From Algoriphagus sp. (GTDB taxonomy: Bacteria; Bacteroidota; Bacteroidia; Cytophagales; Cyclobacteriaceae), in contig NZ_JAUXYL010000038.1 in the NCBI RefSeq assembly GCF_030694375.1, positions 372,001-436,000 on the forward strand: DNA of 64,000 nucleotides. Reading direction: 5' to 3'. The position numbers and the translations under genes are program-made. Every line of letters begins with the position of its first letter. The first letter of the stretch is position 1. Below the pieces are notes generated by a model. That model was not told where the DNA came from. It saw only the letters and a program-made list of their open reading frames with translations, and made no database searches. Below, piece by piece: positions 50,513 to 57,811 of the stretch.

Positions 50513-51418
50513 ATGAATGCTTGGGAAAATTTTAACCAATTAGCGGAAACCGTCACCAACGAAATCATCAAAGGTATCCAAAATGAAAACCTTACTTGGG
50601 AACAAGTTTGGAGTCCTAAAAACTCTCCGAAGAATTATGCTTCCAACCGTCCTTATTTGGGATTCAATGCACTTTGGCTAGCCTGGGTGACCATATCCAA
50701 GAAATTCAAAAGTCCCTATTTCCTTACTTATAATCAGGCAAAGCACCTTGGTGGAAATGTCAAGAAGGATGAAAAAGGTTCTAAAGTCGTATTCTGGAAG
50801 ATTTCCAAGTTTGTAAAAGGAAAGGCTACCAATGAAGAAGGGGAAAGCGAGGATCTTTTTGGGAGGAAGTTTACTCCTTTTATCTGGACGGTTTTCAATA
50901 TCGATCAAATAGAAGGTATCAATTTTCCCATTGAAGGTGCCGAGGAAAGGGTTTTTTCCCCAATCGAAACTTGTGAATCCATCATTGCAGGCTACACCAC
51001 TTGTCCGAATATTATTCATGAAGGAGACGAGGCATTTTACAGCCCTTCCAGAGATTTTATCAATATGCCGGAAAAGGAATCCTTCAATGGAGACGAGCAA
51101 TATTATTCAGTTCTCTTTCATGAAATGATCCACTCGACAGGCCATTCAAGCAGATTAGGAAGATTTGCAGAAAGACCGGCTTTGGTTGGTTTTGGTTCGG
51201 TGGAATATTCAAAAGAGGAATTGATTGCCGAAATGGGAGCCAGTTTTTTGAATGCTCTTGCCGGAATCAAGGATGCTAATTTCAAAAACTCCTTAGCTTA
51301 TCTGAAAGGATGGTTTAAGCCACTACAGGAAGATCCAAAAATGCTGATCTATGCAGCTCAAAAGGCACATCAAGCAGCGAATTATATTCTTGGAATTGAC
51401 CAGGAGGGGGAGGAATAA
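50513..51418 (+). CDS. ArdC-like anti-restriction protein (ssDNA-binding plus zincin metallopeptidase)
   Basis: A 301-residue cytoplasmic protein. The N-terminal part (about 1-130) matches the ArdC/DUF1738 ssDNA-binding domain (NRPYLGFNALWL, then KKDEKGSKVVFWK). The C-terminal part is a zincin-like metallopeptidase with HEMIH at 203-207 followed by STGH. ArdC-type proteins protect incoming single-stranded plasmid DNA from host restriction during conjugation. It follows noncoding backbone sequence and probably has its own promoter. It shares the element with a complete type III R-M system. Confidence 0.88.
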   Translation: MNAWENFNQLAETVTNEIIKGIQNENLTWEQVWSPKNSPKNYASNRPYLGFNALWLAWVTISKKFKSPYFLTYNQAKHLGGNVKKDEKGSKVVFWKISKFVKGKATNEEGESEDLFGRKFTPFIWTVFNIDQIEGINFPIEGAEERVFSPIETCESIIAGYTTCPNIIHEGDEAFYSPSRDFINMPEKESFNGDEQYYSVLFHEMIHSTGHSSRLGRFAERPALVGFGSVEYSKEELIAEMGASFLNALAGIKDANFKNSLAYLKGWFKPLQEDPKMLIYAAQKAHQAANYILGIDQEGEE

Positions 51419-54046: not shown

Positions 54047-55426
54047 TTAAGAATCCCATTTCATTTTCCAGGCAGTAAATTCGGAAGGTCTGATTCGGTA
54101 GCGGACAAAATTCCCTTCATGTAATCCCAACAGTTCTGTTTCTACTACTTCGGAGAGCCTGGATTGGTCTGGTTCTGGTAATTTTTTGACTTCGGATTTT
54201 ATTGCTTGGGATGCTGCTTCTTTATCCATTGCATTGGTCACGATGTGGCTGACGATCGCTCGTATTTCTTCTCGGTATTTTAAGCGGAAAGGATCCGGCT
54301 CGCCAAGAGATTGACGAATGGCCGCATACCTCAAAGCTGACCGCTCATAGGCCCACAAAAAAACATCCTTGAATAATTCGATCCGGTTTAATTCATAAAT
54401 GCCTAGCATTCCTTTGATATAGCTTTCTTCCGGTACGTCTATAAATGAAAGAGGAGCAAGGTTGTGTCGGTTCAAAGGAATATTGGCAGCCAATCTGGAT
54501 ACTCGCTTATTGACATCATCAAAGGGTTGGAGATAGGGAAGCTGAACCAATACAAAAAACGCCTGCTCAAATGGATTTTGGATTTGGCTTGCTTTTTCCA
54601 GAATCAGATCAAAGGATTCTTCGATGAGTTGAGGAATTCCCAACGGAGTAAATACCGAATTGGTGATTCCAACACCAAATGTTCTAAGCCTACCGGATGC
54701 AGCGGGATTTGGCAACAGGTTGTTTGAAAGTAGAGCATGTAGATTGAGAAAAGTATAGCGATTGAAGCCCACCTCTTCAGACGATTCTACCAAAAACTCA
54801 ATGGCTTCCTTGTGGTTGAGAATCATCTGCGTTTCCATGGGGGATTTGTTCGAGGGGGTTTTTCCGTTATGGATAAGCAACTCCGTATCCAAAAGGGAAT
54901 AGGTGTTGCCTTCCAGTCTACTTGAATTCCAAGAGAGGTCGATCAATAGGCGATTTAATATTTCTCTGGCATAGGTCCCAGCTGGCTGTTCTCCATTCTT
55001 AGTATTTCCCCATTCAGCCAGTTTTTGTTTTCCTTCTTTGCTGAGAAAGCTATCGATGTTGGGACGGTAATTTTCCAAGAAACTTCGTTCGTATCCGACA
55101 GGTTTTCGTTGTGCTACAGGACGTGAGACCAAGGCCCAAACGTCTTTGCCTTCTTGTGAAAGGGGAATGGTCGATTGTCGCTCCTCTTCTGATTTTATTC
55201 TTCCAGAATCCTGAGTTTGTTCAGGGACATTTGTATAATACTTTGTGGATCGAGCATCTCCTTTTATTAGGATCAGATTTTTTTCTCTGAGGCTTTTTAG
55301 TCGTCTTTGAAGCGCTCTCTTTTCAATATGAAATGGGAGCAATCGAAGCAGTTGTTCTATTCCTAAGCCATCAGAAGATGATGCAATTATTTCTTTAATC
55401 AGTTGTAGCTCATCTCGATTTTCCAT
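54047..55426 (-). CDS. Fic-like protein with N-terminal winged helix and divergent catalytic motif
   Basis: A 459-residue protein from the ATG at 55426; an upstream ATG at 55492 overlaps a putative operator. An N-terminal winged-helix domain (about 1-65) precedes a Fic-N region with the inhibitory motif SSRLEG (S168-G173) and a Fic core. The core motif reads LQPFDDVNKR with Gln at 300, where active Fic enzymes have HPFxxGNGR. The catalytic His is thus replaced, as in a known divergent subgroup. AMP transfer may be lost or altered, and DNA-binding autoregulation is likely. Two dyads lie just upstream. Confidence 0.85.
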   Translation of the reverse strand: MENRDELQLIKEIIASSSDGLGIEQLLRLLPFHIEKRALQRRLKSLREKNLILIKGDARSTKYYTNVPEQTQDSGRIKSEEERQSTIPLSQEGKDVWALVSRPVAQRKPVGYERSFLENYRPNIDSFLSKEGKQKLAEWGNTKNGEQPAGTYAREILNRLLIDLSWNSSRLEGNTYSLLDTELLIHNGKTPSNKSPMETQMILNHKEAIEFLVESSEEVGFNRYTFLNLHALLSNNLLPNPAASGRLRTFGVGITNSVFTPLGIPQLIEESFDLILEKASQIQNPFEQAFFVLVQLPYLQPFDDVNKRVSRLAANIPLNRHNLAPLSFIDVPEESYIKGMLGIYELNRIELFKDVFLWAYERSALRYAAIRQSLGEPDPFRLKYREEIRAIVSHIVTNAMDKEAASQAIKSEVKKLPEPDQSRLSEVVETELLGLHEGNFVRYRIRPSEFTAWKMKWDS

Positions 55427-55466
55427 TTTCAATCCCATTTGTATCGCGACAATAATAGCATAAAAA

Positions 55467-55522
55467 TGACGCAATAAAAAGAATTGTGTCATGATAATTG
55501 ACGCAATACTTAAATCGCGTCA
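55467..55522 (-). promoter_or_regulatory. Tandem dyads upstream of the Fic-like gene
   Basis: Four copies of one half-site form two inverted pairs: TGACGCAA (55467-55474) with TTGTGTCA (55484-55491), and TGACGCAA (55499-55506) with TCGCGTCA (55515-55522). They start 40 bp upstream of the ATG at 55426, across the expected promoter. The winged-helix domain of the Fic-like protein is a natural candidate to bind them. Confidence 0.65.
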
Positions 55523-55630: not shown

Positions 55631-57811
55631 TCAGATTCTAAAACCAAGGGAAATAACCAAACTTCTTCCATCAGACGACCATATGCCTGGTCCCGGATAC
55701 ATTTGAGGTCTTTTTGTGAAATAGGAGTTGTCGAAAATATTCTGAAAACTTGCCCGCAAAGTCAGGTTTTCATAGGTATAAATTCCCTGAAGATCCCAGA
55801 TGTGATAGGAAGGAACCAAACCCACTGCACCTGAAGGAGGTGGACTTTTTGTATTGAGTGCGTCGGAAAAAGATTCGCTTACAAACTGATGCTGTAGAGC
55901 CAATTGTAAAGAACCATAGGAAGCGGTTAGCCCGTTTCTGCTGATCCACTCGGGAACAGCCTCTACATAATTCCCTTCAATTTCCTCATTTCCTTCCGAT
56001 CCTGCCACTAAACCATTAAGATATCTAGCCCGCATCCAACTCGATGAGGTATAAAAGGAAAGAGCAAAGCGATTTTTCTTCAGGAATTCCCAGTCCCAGA
56101 GGAGTTCCACTCCGGCCGTTCCGCTGTCACCTATGTTGCTTTTTTGGATCAGAGAAGTTTCATCTTGTTCCACCAAAATATTACCAACACGGTTACCTAT
56201 AAATGTATAAAATAAAGTGGTGTTTAAATTCATCGCCTCCTTGGGGCTGAGTTCCCAGCCTATTTCCGAATTGTATCCAAAGCTGTGTTTGAGGTTTGGG
56301 TTGATTATAGTTAGGGGATTTCCGGGAATGATATCCTGAAACAGGACAGGTCTGTTGGCTTGGGAAATTCCTGCATAGAGGCGATTGGAAGTCGAAAAGT
56401 GATAATTGGCGTTGATTCCTAAAGCCACAAAATCATATTCAATTTCCTGAGGTACCTGCGCTGATTCCACAAAACTTATGGTCCCACTCATTACCGAATT
56501 TCCATTTTCAATCCGTATTCCCGGGGAAATTGAAAATCGGTCATTTAGGTGAAATTGGTTTTCCAGGGAAGCGGCAATGCTGTGACTCTTCAAATTGATA
56601 TCTCTAGGGAATTCACCAATGATAGTAAGGTCATAGTCTGTACCGGTTGTTCCCTTTCCACGCTGCCTCCGATCAAAAGAATTGTTGAAATATCGGACGG
56701 AAATAGAGAGATCATTTTTTACAGAACCCAAAGTATATCCGTGAAGAATTCTCGCCTCAACGGTCCGGGTATGGTAATTATCAATATCCACATTTCTAGC
56801 TGCGTACTCGGAGGTTGAGCTATTGATGGTGTCGGGCACATTGGCAAAGGCATCAAAAGTGACTGAGCTTCTCTGACCAAATACCCCGCTTCCCACCAAG
56901 CTGAAACTGGTGTTTGCAGCCAATTTGCCTTCCAGCGTCACTGCAGGAACCCATATTTCCGGACTGTAATAATTGCGTGTTCGGGTGGCTTGGGTCGGGT
57001 CTTGCTCAAATTGTGCGTCTGTAAGCGGACCTGGAATCTGGTACAAGAAGATACTTCTGCTCAGTTCTGCTTTGCCTTTTAGCCGATCATTAAACTGATA
57101 CGAAATTTCCACATGCTGAGCATCAGACTCTGATTTTCCGTTATCTCGGTATCCATTGGAATTCCGCTTTTGGTAGTACCCAAAATAGCTGAACTTCCCT
57201 ACCGTCCCTCCGATTGAGGTGCAGTTGGATAAGAGGCCAAAAGAACCTGCGGAACTGATGTTTTCAAGGCTAAACTTTCTGCTTGGATCGGGTTTTTTGA
57301 GCACGTAATTGAGCATGCCACCAAACTGCTGACCATACTGAAGTGCGGCGGTTCCACGAATCAATTCTATCTGCCCGACCGCTTCTATTGGCATGGAATA
57401 GTGACTGGCAGGATACCCATAGATATCGGTATTGATCATTACGCCGTTTTGCCGCACGTTGAATTCCCAACTGCGGTGGCCATCTAATCCCCTTACAGAG
57501 AGGTTGATTTGATTGCCGGTGCCATCCATGTCATAAATAAATGCAGAAGGGATCTTTGCAAAAAGACTACGGCCTGTCTTTTCTGCAAGATTAGTAGCCA
57601 GTCCGCTCAGGGAAATAACTTCGGATTTCCTTCCTCCGATTATCATCAATCCATTCGTTGAGGGGAGACTGGTGACCGGGTTTTGAAGTCGGAAATTCTG
57701 GATTTTAATCTCTTCGAGAGATAAGGTTTTAATAGTGTCTTGCTGTGCATATACTCTGCCTGAAAGGCAGCAATAGGCCATCAGCAAGTAGAAATAATAC
57801 TTGTAATTCAT
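55631..57811 (-). CDS. TonB-dependent outer-membrane receptor (FecA-like)
   Basis: A 726-residue outer-membrane transporter with a signal peptide (about residues 1-22, ending VYAQ). A plug domain (about 45-170) includes the motifs VRGLDGHRSW and IELIRGTAALQYG, followed by a large beta-barrel that ends SLGFRI. It lacks the N-terminal carboxypeptidase-like repeat of SusC-type receptors. This fits siderophore- or haem-type iron or metal-complex uptake (FecA/FepA group). The partner gene lies 55 bp upstream on the same strand. The substrate cannot be read from the sequence. Confidence 0.92.
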   Translation of the reverse strand: MNYKYYFYLLMAYCCLSGRVYAQQDTIKTLSLEEIKIQNFRLQNPVTSLPSTNGLMIIGGRKSEVISLSGLATNLAEKTGRSLFAKIPSAFIYDMDGTGNQINLSVRGLDGHRSWEFNVRQNGVMINTDIYGYPASHYSMPIEAVGQIELIRGTAALQYGQQFGGMLNYVLKKPDPSRKFSLENISSAGSFGLLSNCTSIGGTVGKFSYFGYYQKRNSNGYRDNGKSESDAQHVEISYQFNDRLKGKAELSRSIFLYQIPGPLTDAQFEQDPTQATRTRNYYSPEIWVPAVTLEGKLAANTSFSLVGSGVFGQRSSVTFDAFANVPDTINSSTSEYAARNVDIDNYHTRTVEARILHGYTLGSVKNDLSISVRYFNNSFDRRQRGKGTTGTDYDLTIIGEFPRDINLKSHSIAASLENQFHLNDRFSISPGIRIENGNSVMSGTISFVESAQVPQEIEYDFVALGINANYHFSTSNRLYAGISQANRPVLFQDIIPGNPLTIINPNLKHSFGYNSEIGWELSPKEAMNLNTTLFYTFIGNRVGNILVEQDETSLIQKSNIGDSGTAGVELLWDWEFLKKNRFALSFYTSSSWMRARYLNGLVAGSEGNEEIEGNYVEAVPEWISRNGLTASYGSLQLALQHQFVSESFSDALNTKSPPPSGAVGLVPSYHIWDLQGIYTYENLTLRASFQNIFDNSYFTKRPQMYPGPGIWSSDGRSLVISLGFRI

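What the first reader, a model, noticed from the sequence alone, without database searches (positions are those of the whole stretch)
54047..55426. Fic-like protein with Gln in place of the catalytic His
The core reads LQPFDDVNKR (Q300) instead of HPFxxGNGR, while the inhibitory motif SSRLEG is intact. Keeping an inhibitor for a core without the catalytic His is puzzling. The protein may have other chemistry or act as a transcription factor through its winged helix.
Basis: partly seen in the sequence, partly recalled or inferred. Interest (0 to 1): 0.52.

Follow-up and report, generated by a model that had tools for sequence, protein, structure and literature searches.

The report
His-less Fic protein, probable self-repressor
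This gene encodes a Fic-family protein that lacks the histidine these enzymes normally need, and it probably switches its own gene off by binding repeated DNA signals just in front of it; the missing histidine was already catalogued, but the matching DNA signals appear not to have been described.

Summary
In detail: a 459-aa Fic protein on the minus strand (55426..54047) has Gln300 in place of the catalytic His and keeps the inhibitory motif SSRLEG. It is not a one-off. Gln is invariant in 52 of 52 aligned relatives, always with NK, the metal Asp, the second Arg and the inhibitory Glu, under strong purifying selection. Khater and Mohanty (2015) already described such a Gln clade, D2, without a function.

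New here: the protein has an N-terminal winged-helix-like domain, and just upstream of its gene lies an array of spaced half-sites (TGNCGC, 55522-55446). Over 50 promoters there are 135 sites against 13.5 expected. A sister Gln clade has TGAGC arrays, 53 against 3.7. His-type Fic genes show none by a motif-free score: 0 of 18. The half-site changes with the winged helix: relatives 95-99% identical in the Fic domain but 38-41% in the winged helix carry another half-site.

Best reading: a solitary, mobile, autorepressed DNA-binding protein whose His-less pocket binds a ligand or target instead of AMPylating. DNA binding, repression and ligand are inferred. Against it: the exact motif failed in most held-out plasmid genes, and 4 of 11 TGAGC arrays have no such gene nearby.

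The parts
54047..55426 (-). Coding sequence of the Gln-type Fic protein, 459 aa (stop codon included)
55229..55426 (-). N-terminal winged-helix-like domain, residues 1-66 (three helices, then a two-strand wing; putative recognition helix 36-48)
   Evidence: Predicted secondary structure in two models (the domain model is weak, pLDDT 62); Foldseek list headed by winged-helix chains such as SmtB and ArsR, best E 0.0057; HTH Pfam families in a few of 34 members
54905..54925 (-). Inhibitory motif SSRLEGN, residues 168-174, with invariant Glu172
54494..54529 (-). Altered Fic motif QPFDDVNKRVSR, residues 300-311
55446..55522 (.). Probable operator: array of TGNCGC half-sites between the preceding gene and the start codon
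55517..55522 (-). Half-site TGACGC
55499..55504 (+). Half-site TGACGC (read GCGTCA on the gene's strand)
55486..55491 (-). Imperfect half-site TGACAC
   Evidence: TGACGC at the same place in L034 and L037
55467..55472 (+). Half-site TGACGC (read GCGTCA on the gene's strand)
55446..55451 (-). Half-site TGTCGC

Best explanation
A solitary, horizontally moving, autoregulated Fic-fold protein. Its N-terminal winged helix binds the array of half-sites in front of its own gene, probably several molecules together, and represses the gene. The Fic pocket keeps the phosphate- and metal-binding residues and the inhibitory Glu but not the His, so it probably binds a nucleotide-like ligand or a target protein without AMPylating, and that binding decides whether the protein sits on DNA or acts elsewhere. 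Shown by computation: the conservation of the altered pocket, purifying selection, the arrays and their change with the winged helix. Inferred: DNA binding (about 0.85), repression as the sign of regulation (about 0.75), no AMPylation (about 0.75), ligand binding (about 0.5). What it does beyond its own promoter is not known.
For: Pocket residues invariant in 52 of 52 proteins; Fic-domain dN/dS 0.024-0.042 in eight comparisons. TGNCGC 135 sites against 13.5 in 50 promoters, first among all such 6-mers; regular spacing, 25 of 29 neighbouring + then - sites at 18 or 19 bp. TGAGC/GCTCA 53 against 3.7 in 16 genes of the sister clade; five of these were fetched after the motif was noted and have 24 sites against about 1.5. 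Motif-free repeat score: 35 of 75 Gln-type promoters at p<=0.05, against 0 of 18 His-type Fic promoters and 9 of 200 neighbouring genes. Natural exchange of winged helix and half-site on a near-constant Fic domain. A Fic protein with an HTH domain is known to repress its own promoter through palindromes (CccR, PMC9755527, passages). FICD needs the His for both AMPylation and deAMPylation (PMC8373988, passages).
Against: No binding or expression was measured. TGNCGC reached P<=0.05 in 38 of 50 promoters, not in the other 12, and in only 3 of 14 held-out plasmid genes, where other repeats stand instead. The window's own promoter does not pass the motif-free score alone (p=0.115); in a later set 3 of 11 passed, some with doubtful starts. 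Four of 11 TGAGC arrays found genome-wide have no Gln-Fic gene within about 1.5 kb. The winged-helix call rests on a weak model and sparse Pfam matches. Winged helix and array are adjacent, so one recombination could carry both without selection for a match. A protein that regulates only itself needs a further activity, which was not found.
Confidence: 0.6

Rival explanations
1. It is still an enzyme with altered chemistry: Gln300 positions a substrate, and Lys307, Glu172 or an activated water does the work (phosphotransfer as in Doc, hydrolysis, or another group transfer). The array only limits its dose.
For: Metal Asp, Asn, both Arg and Glu172 are conserved and the Fic domain is the most constrained part. 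Gln goes with Lys at position 8: no Gln+NGR match in 296 genomes looked like a Fic gene. In Doc, Lys at this position is said to invert ATP and give kinase activity (PMC4177925, passages). Khater and Mohanty argue that Gln-type proteins may not be dead.
Against: In FICD the His is needed for both reactions; Gln cannot act as general base or acid (established chemistry). Doc keeps the His.
Confidence: 0.25
2. The arrays are not operators but mobile palindromic repeats or insertion targets that travel with the gene.
For: Four solitary TGAGC arrays without a Gln-Fic gene; the one in L141 seems to lie inside an interrupted sensor-kinase gene. Nine of 14 plasmid copies stand near integrase, recombinase or transposition genes.
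Against: Arrays stand directly before the start codon and the half-site changes with the winged helix. In the +-5 kb scan, dense TGNCGC clusters lay only at the Fic promoters (L068, a broken gene, included by its N-terminal fragment; L020 belongs to the sister clade and was not resolved).
Confidence: 0.1
3. A decaying pseudoenzyme without function.
For: Loss of the catalytic His; degraded copies exist in some genomes.
Against: dN/dS 0.06-0.14 overall and 0.024-0.042 in the Fic domain; the same residues invariant from Bacteroidota to Proteobacteria.
Confidence: 0.02

Closest known systems
Fic/Doc clade D2 of Khater and Mohanty 2015 (PMC4454073, section 6 read)
   Same: Gln for the catalytic His; motif Qx[F|Y]x[D|E][G|V]NKR; function unknown
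   Different: The paper files D2 under Doc as usually single-domain. Here the family has an N-terminal winged-helix-like domain, an inhibitory motif and the second Arg, and matches FICD best by sequence and fold; promoter arrays are not mentioned in the section read.
CccR of Yersinia pseudotuberculosis (PMC9755527, passages)
   Same: Fic fold joined to an HTH domain; represses its own promoter by binding palindromes; keeps the inhibitory Ser/Glu
   Different: CccR has a C-terminal HTH and AMPylates FtsZ; here the domain is N-terminal and the His is missing.
FICD/HYPE and Fic-1 (class II Fic enzymes with an N-terminal inhibitory helix)
   Same: Best structural match, 4u0u chain A: Z 24.2, 2.5 A over 237 residues; inhibitory Glu, Asp, Asn and both Arg aligned
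   Different: His replaced by Gln, both glycines of GNGR replaced, winged helix in place of TPR.
Sofic anti-phage Fic proteins (PMC12249575, abstract) and PADLOC PDC-S04
   Same: Weak profile matches in all 34 members scanned; for the window 53.0 bits (PDC-S04) and 32.4 bits (SoFic)
   Different: Sofic acts by AMPylation and has an antitoxin gene downstream; no conserved partner was found here.
Doc toxins
   Same: Lys at motif position 8
   Different: Doc has the His and a Phd antitoxin and lacks the second Arg.

Membership tests
Fic/DOC superfamily (PF02661) | Profile score above the curated cut-off | tested here: met
   33.4 bits, cut-off 24; matched at E<=0.05 by 34 of 34 members
Fic/DOC superfamily (PF02661) | Fic fold | tested here: met
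   Z 24.2 to FICD 4u0u chain A
Class II Fic AMPylase | Catalytic motif HPFx[D/E]GN[G/K]R with His | tested here: not met
   Gln in 52 of 52
Class II Fic AMPylase | Inhibitory motif [S/T]xxxE[G/N] before the Fic core (definition recalled) | tested here: met
   S168-SRLEG; E172 52 of 52, G173 51 of 52
Class II Fic AMPylase | AMP transfer to protein | not testable with these tools
   Needs an assay
Doc kinase | HxFx(D/N)(A/G)NKR with His | tested here: not met
   Gln; definition from PMC4177925 passages
Doc kinase | Absent second Arg | tested here: not met
   R311 52 of 52; definition
Doc kinase | Phd-like antitoxin partner in the operon | tested here: not met
   No neighbour family of 80 aa or more in more than 8 of 39 loci, those 8 being Methylomonas-type; smaller genes not examined
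Clade D2 (Khater and Mohanty) | Motif Qx[F|Y]x[D|E][G|V]NKR | tested here: met
   QPFDDVNKR; definition. Identity with their 45 sequences was not checked
Clade D2 (Khater and Mohanty) | Usually single-domain | tested here: not met
   N-terminal winged-helix-like domain
CccR-type autorepressor | DNA-binding domain joined to a Fic domain | tested here: inconclusive
   Winged-helix-like by weak model and Foldseek E 0.0057 at best
CccR-type autorepressor | Binding to and repression of its own promoter | not testable with these tools
   Arrays found; binding not measured
CccR-type autorepressor | Active AMPylating Fic motif | tested here: not met
   Gln300
Sofic / PDC-S04 defence | Profile match | tested here: inconclusive
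   Partial matches; the library output gives no cut-off
Sofic / PDC-S04 defence | Protection against phage | not testable with these tools
   Needs an assay

The most novel reading that the evidence does not exclude
Gln-Fic genes are one-gene selfish or defence modules with 'immunity groups': a near-constant Fic effector is combined with exchangeable winged-helix-plus-operator cassettes, so that a resident copy silences an incoming copy of its own specificity while a copy of another specificity is expressed on entry. The His-less Fic pocket is the sensor or trigger rather than an AMPylase.
Probability: 0.18. Interest if true: 0.8.

Novelty: new variant of a known kind. Interest (0 to 1): 0.57.

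Why it matters
Fic proteins without the catalytic His were listed as functionally unknown in 2015. An array of half-sites that goes with the winged helix gives a concrete, cheap test of what such a protein does: bind its own promoter. It would explain why a Fic fold without the usual chemistry is kept under strong selection, would make the Fic pocket a candidate ligand sensor, and offers natural exchanges of winged helix and operator as ready-made specificity experiments.

Tried and rejected
Decay or artefact: rejected.

Partner gene: clustering of ORFs of 80 aa or more in 39 loci gave, apart from the Fic gene, no family in more than 8 loci; those 8 (L054-L058, L060, L068, L069) are Methylomonas-type and share context.

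Known effector or defence family: only weak partial PADLOC matches. NCBIfam gave XopAC/AvrAC at E 0.14 and 10.8 bits against a cut-off of 450 for the window, and one cas_HTH match among 34 members; both discounted.

Phage origin: 2 partial matches in 50,697 phage records.

Regulon in the own genome: TGACGCN10-16GCGTCA gave 3 places, control 0; TGWCGCN12GCGWCA 2 places, control 0; GCGTCAN5-36GCGTCA 5 matches, control 6; GCGTCAN5-26TGWCGC 2, control 7. The own promoter is in each list; the others lie in or near unrelated genes (L070 and L071 looked at). Single or mismatched sites were not scanned.

Promoter scan: one sigma-70-like match, inside the coding region and below the shuffle mean; Bacteroidota promoters are not covered.

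Substitute for the His: not resolved, as the model's coordinates are not given.

Rows dropped: L054, L056, L060 and L068 from the TGNCGC table (near copies, broken gene); L022 from the sister-clade test (its motif was not caught by the regular expression); one of 19 His-type genes (L106) from the promoter control for want of upstream DNA; 200 distinct of 241 collected neighbour promoters were scored. Related genes are not independent, so shuffle P values overstate certainty. The tree has very long branches and no outgroup.

Literature: 'Fic domain' with DVNKR gave 0 papers; listings for degenerate or Gln Fic, Fic with winged helix or autoregulation and Fic with operator or autorepression showed no paper on these arrays. 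Only open-licence PMC papers are held, and listings were capped.

Full report
WHAT IS THERE. The gene lies on the minus strand, 55426..54047, and encodes 459 aa. Pfam Fic scores 33.4 bits (cut-off 24). The own genome holds one copy and two HPFx-NGR-type motif matches elsewhere. The model (mean pLDDT 79.5) matches FICD best: 4u0u chain A, Z 24.2, 2.5 A over 237 residues. A profile search of solved structures puts Fic-1 and FICD first, with Gln300 aligned to the catalytic His, Glu172 to the inhibitory Glu, and both Arg kept.

THE GLN IS A CLADE CHARACTER. Relatives came from 196 genomes of the family (59 with a match at E<=0.001, weaker Fic hits included) and from genome contigs (39 loci in Bacteroidota and Proteobacteria). 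In 52 aligned non-identical proteins Q300, E172, D304, N306, K307 and R311 are invariant. A sister Gln clade of about 345 aa (QPFxDGNKR) was among the weaker hits. Of 51 plasmid records with a match I took 14; all 14 have Gln with NKR. Of 20 weaker-hit loci fetched, 19 carry HPFxDGNGR and one carries Gln with GNKR. In 296 Bacteroidota genomes the DNA patterns matched as follows: Gln+NKR in 16 genomes (17 matches), His+NKR in 54, His+NGR in 200, Gln+NGR in 4 (4 matches, against 5 for the reversed control). On reading the loci, 12 of the 17 Gln+NKR matches lie in ORFs with the inhibitory motif; the other five (L108, L109, L113, L118, L121) do not look like this family. Of the four Gln+NGR matches three have no ORF with the motif and the fourth (L138) does not look like a Fic gene. 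In a 67-row tree the 48 Gln rows form one side of a branch with support 100/99; rooting is unknown and some branches are very long. Khater and Mohanty already described a clade with the motif Qx[F|Y]x[D|E][G|V]NKR (45 sequences, D2), argued that it is not dead and gave no function (section 6 read).

SELECTION. dN/dS between the window gene and eight close relatives is 0.06-0.14 overall, 0.024-0.042 in the Fic part (residues 148-370), 0.07-0.28 in the winged helix and 0.10-0.19 in the C-terminal part. The His-less pocket is in use.

THE ARRAY. Repeated half-sites stand before the start codon of most relatives. Over 50 upstream regions of 160 bp TGNCGC occurs 135 times against 13.5 in dinucleotide shuffles; 38 of 50 reach P<=0.05, and the 12 that do not are L012-L017, L040, L046, L050, L053, L059 and L067. 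Among all 6-mers with one free position TGNCGC ranks first; the rest of the loci carry 0.27 per 160 bp. In the window the sites are at 55522-55517, 55504-55499, 55472-55467 and 55451-55446, with an imperfect one at 55491-55486. Neighbouring + then - sites are 18 or 19 bp apart in 25 of 29 cases; same-strand steps fall at 11, 20-21 or 31-32 bp in 24 of 36, near whole helical turns.

OTHER HALF-SITES. The 14 plasmid relatives were a held-out test of the exact motif, and it mostly failed: 18 sites against 8.4, P<=0.05 in 3 of 14. By eye other repeats stand there: TANGCGC types in L073-L076, and different ones in L082, L083 and L084. In the sister clade TGAGC/GCTCA occurs 53 times against 3.7 in 16 genes; 13 of 16 have three or more, often at 22-19-22 spacing; five of the 16 were fetched after the motif was noted and have 24 sites against about 1.5; L025, L029 and L030 instead have TCCTATCA-type repeats. 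A motif-free repeat score was therefore used. At p<=0.05: 35 of 75 Gln-type promoters, including 10 of the 14 plasmid ones, against 0 of 18 His-type Fic promoters and 9 of 200 neighbouring genes. The window's promoter alone does not reach it (p=0.115), and a later set gave 3 of 11, several with doubtful starts.

THE HALF-SITE GOES WITH THE WINGED HELIX. Within the Algoriphagus group seven relatives with RALQRR in the putative recognition helix have mainly TGACGC; six with RTLQRRLK (L038-L042, L047) have mainly TGTCGC. The latter are 95-99% identical to the window in the Fic part but only 38-41% in the winged helix. L004 (RTLQRR; winged helix 68%, Fic part 89%) has mainly TGTCGC. Proteobacterial RTLQRRLA and RTAQR types have mainly TGGCGC, and the four RTLQYR plasmid types have TANGCGC. 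In the Fic tree L040 lies among RALQRR-type rows, on branches of mixed support. Since domain and array are adjacent, one recombination could carry both.

IS IT A WINGED HELIX? Both models give three helices and a two-strand hairpin. The domain model is weak (pLDDT 62); its Foldseek list is rich in winged-helix proteins such as SmtB and ArsR, but the best E is 0.0057. HTH-type Pfam families match only a few of 34 members. Likely, not proven.

GENOME-WIDE. A strict TGAGC array pattern (one mismatch allowed) occurs at one place in each of 11 of 196 family genomes, with none for the reversed control: six before an intact Gln-Fic gene, one before a degraded one (L149), and four (L139, L140, L141, L146) without a detectable Gln-Fic gene in about 1.5 kb. 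These four are unexplained. In the own genome pair patterns return the own promoter plus a few scattered places.

CONTEXT. No neighbour family recurs beyond close kin. Nine of 14 plasmid copies have an integrase, recombinase or transposition gene within about 4 kb; all 14 are annotated Fic family protein. The gene is patchy: 2 of 5 genomes of the same genus in the family sample have it.

HOW IT PROBABLY WORKS. (1) The winged helix binds the array: inferred, well supported. (2) This represses the gene: inferred from position and from CccR (passages). (3) The pocket does not AMPylate: inferred from loss of the His that FICD needs for both reactions (passages). (4) The pocket binds something: inferred from conservation. 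(5) What the protein does beyond its promoter is unknown; a solitary, mobile, self-repressed gene fits a defence, competition or selfish module. The retained inhibitor is then less puzzling: in FICD the same Glu also holds the catalytic water beside AMP, and here it may shape the pocket or couple it to the DNA-binding part.

VERDICT. Observation confirmed; the Gln is already known; the arrays and the winged-helix exchange are the new part, seen in none of the listings named under Tried and rejected.

Noticed in passing
L139 1501-1568, L140 1501-1568, L141 1277-1344, L146 1501-1568: Four solitary TGAGC arrays of the sister-clade type without a Gln-Fic gene nearby; the one in L141 seems to interrupt a sensor-kinase gene.
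   Followed up: partly
L002 and L032 (Algoriphagus boritolerans and a same-genus genome): Pieces of a second, degraded Gln-Fic copy lie directly upstream of the intact one.
   Followed up: no
L068 (Methylomonas fluvii): A broken Gln-Fic gene: the winged-helix piece and the array lie more than 1 kb upstream of the Fic piece.
   Followed up: no
L018 and L149: Further degraded Gln-Fic copies, so the gene is lost often.
   Followed up: no
L053, upstream of the Fic gene: TTAGATA-type repeats in a Lysobacterales relative, another possible half-site type.
   Followed up: no
window 50513-51418 (+): ORF with an HEMIHSTGH metal-binding motif that recalls ArdC-like antirestriction proteins (name recalled, not searched).
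   Followed up: no
window 55631-57811 (-): Preceding gene on the same strand looks like a TonB-dependent receptor (by eye).
   Followed up: no
L125, L126, L128-L134: HPFxDGNKR ORFs with short open segments (104-144 aa) in other Bacteroidota, Doc-like by size.
   Followed up: no
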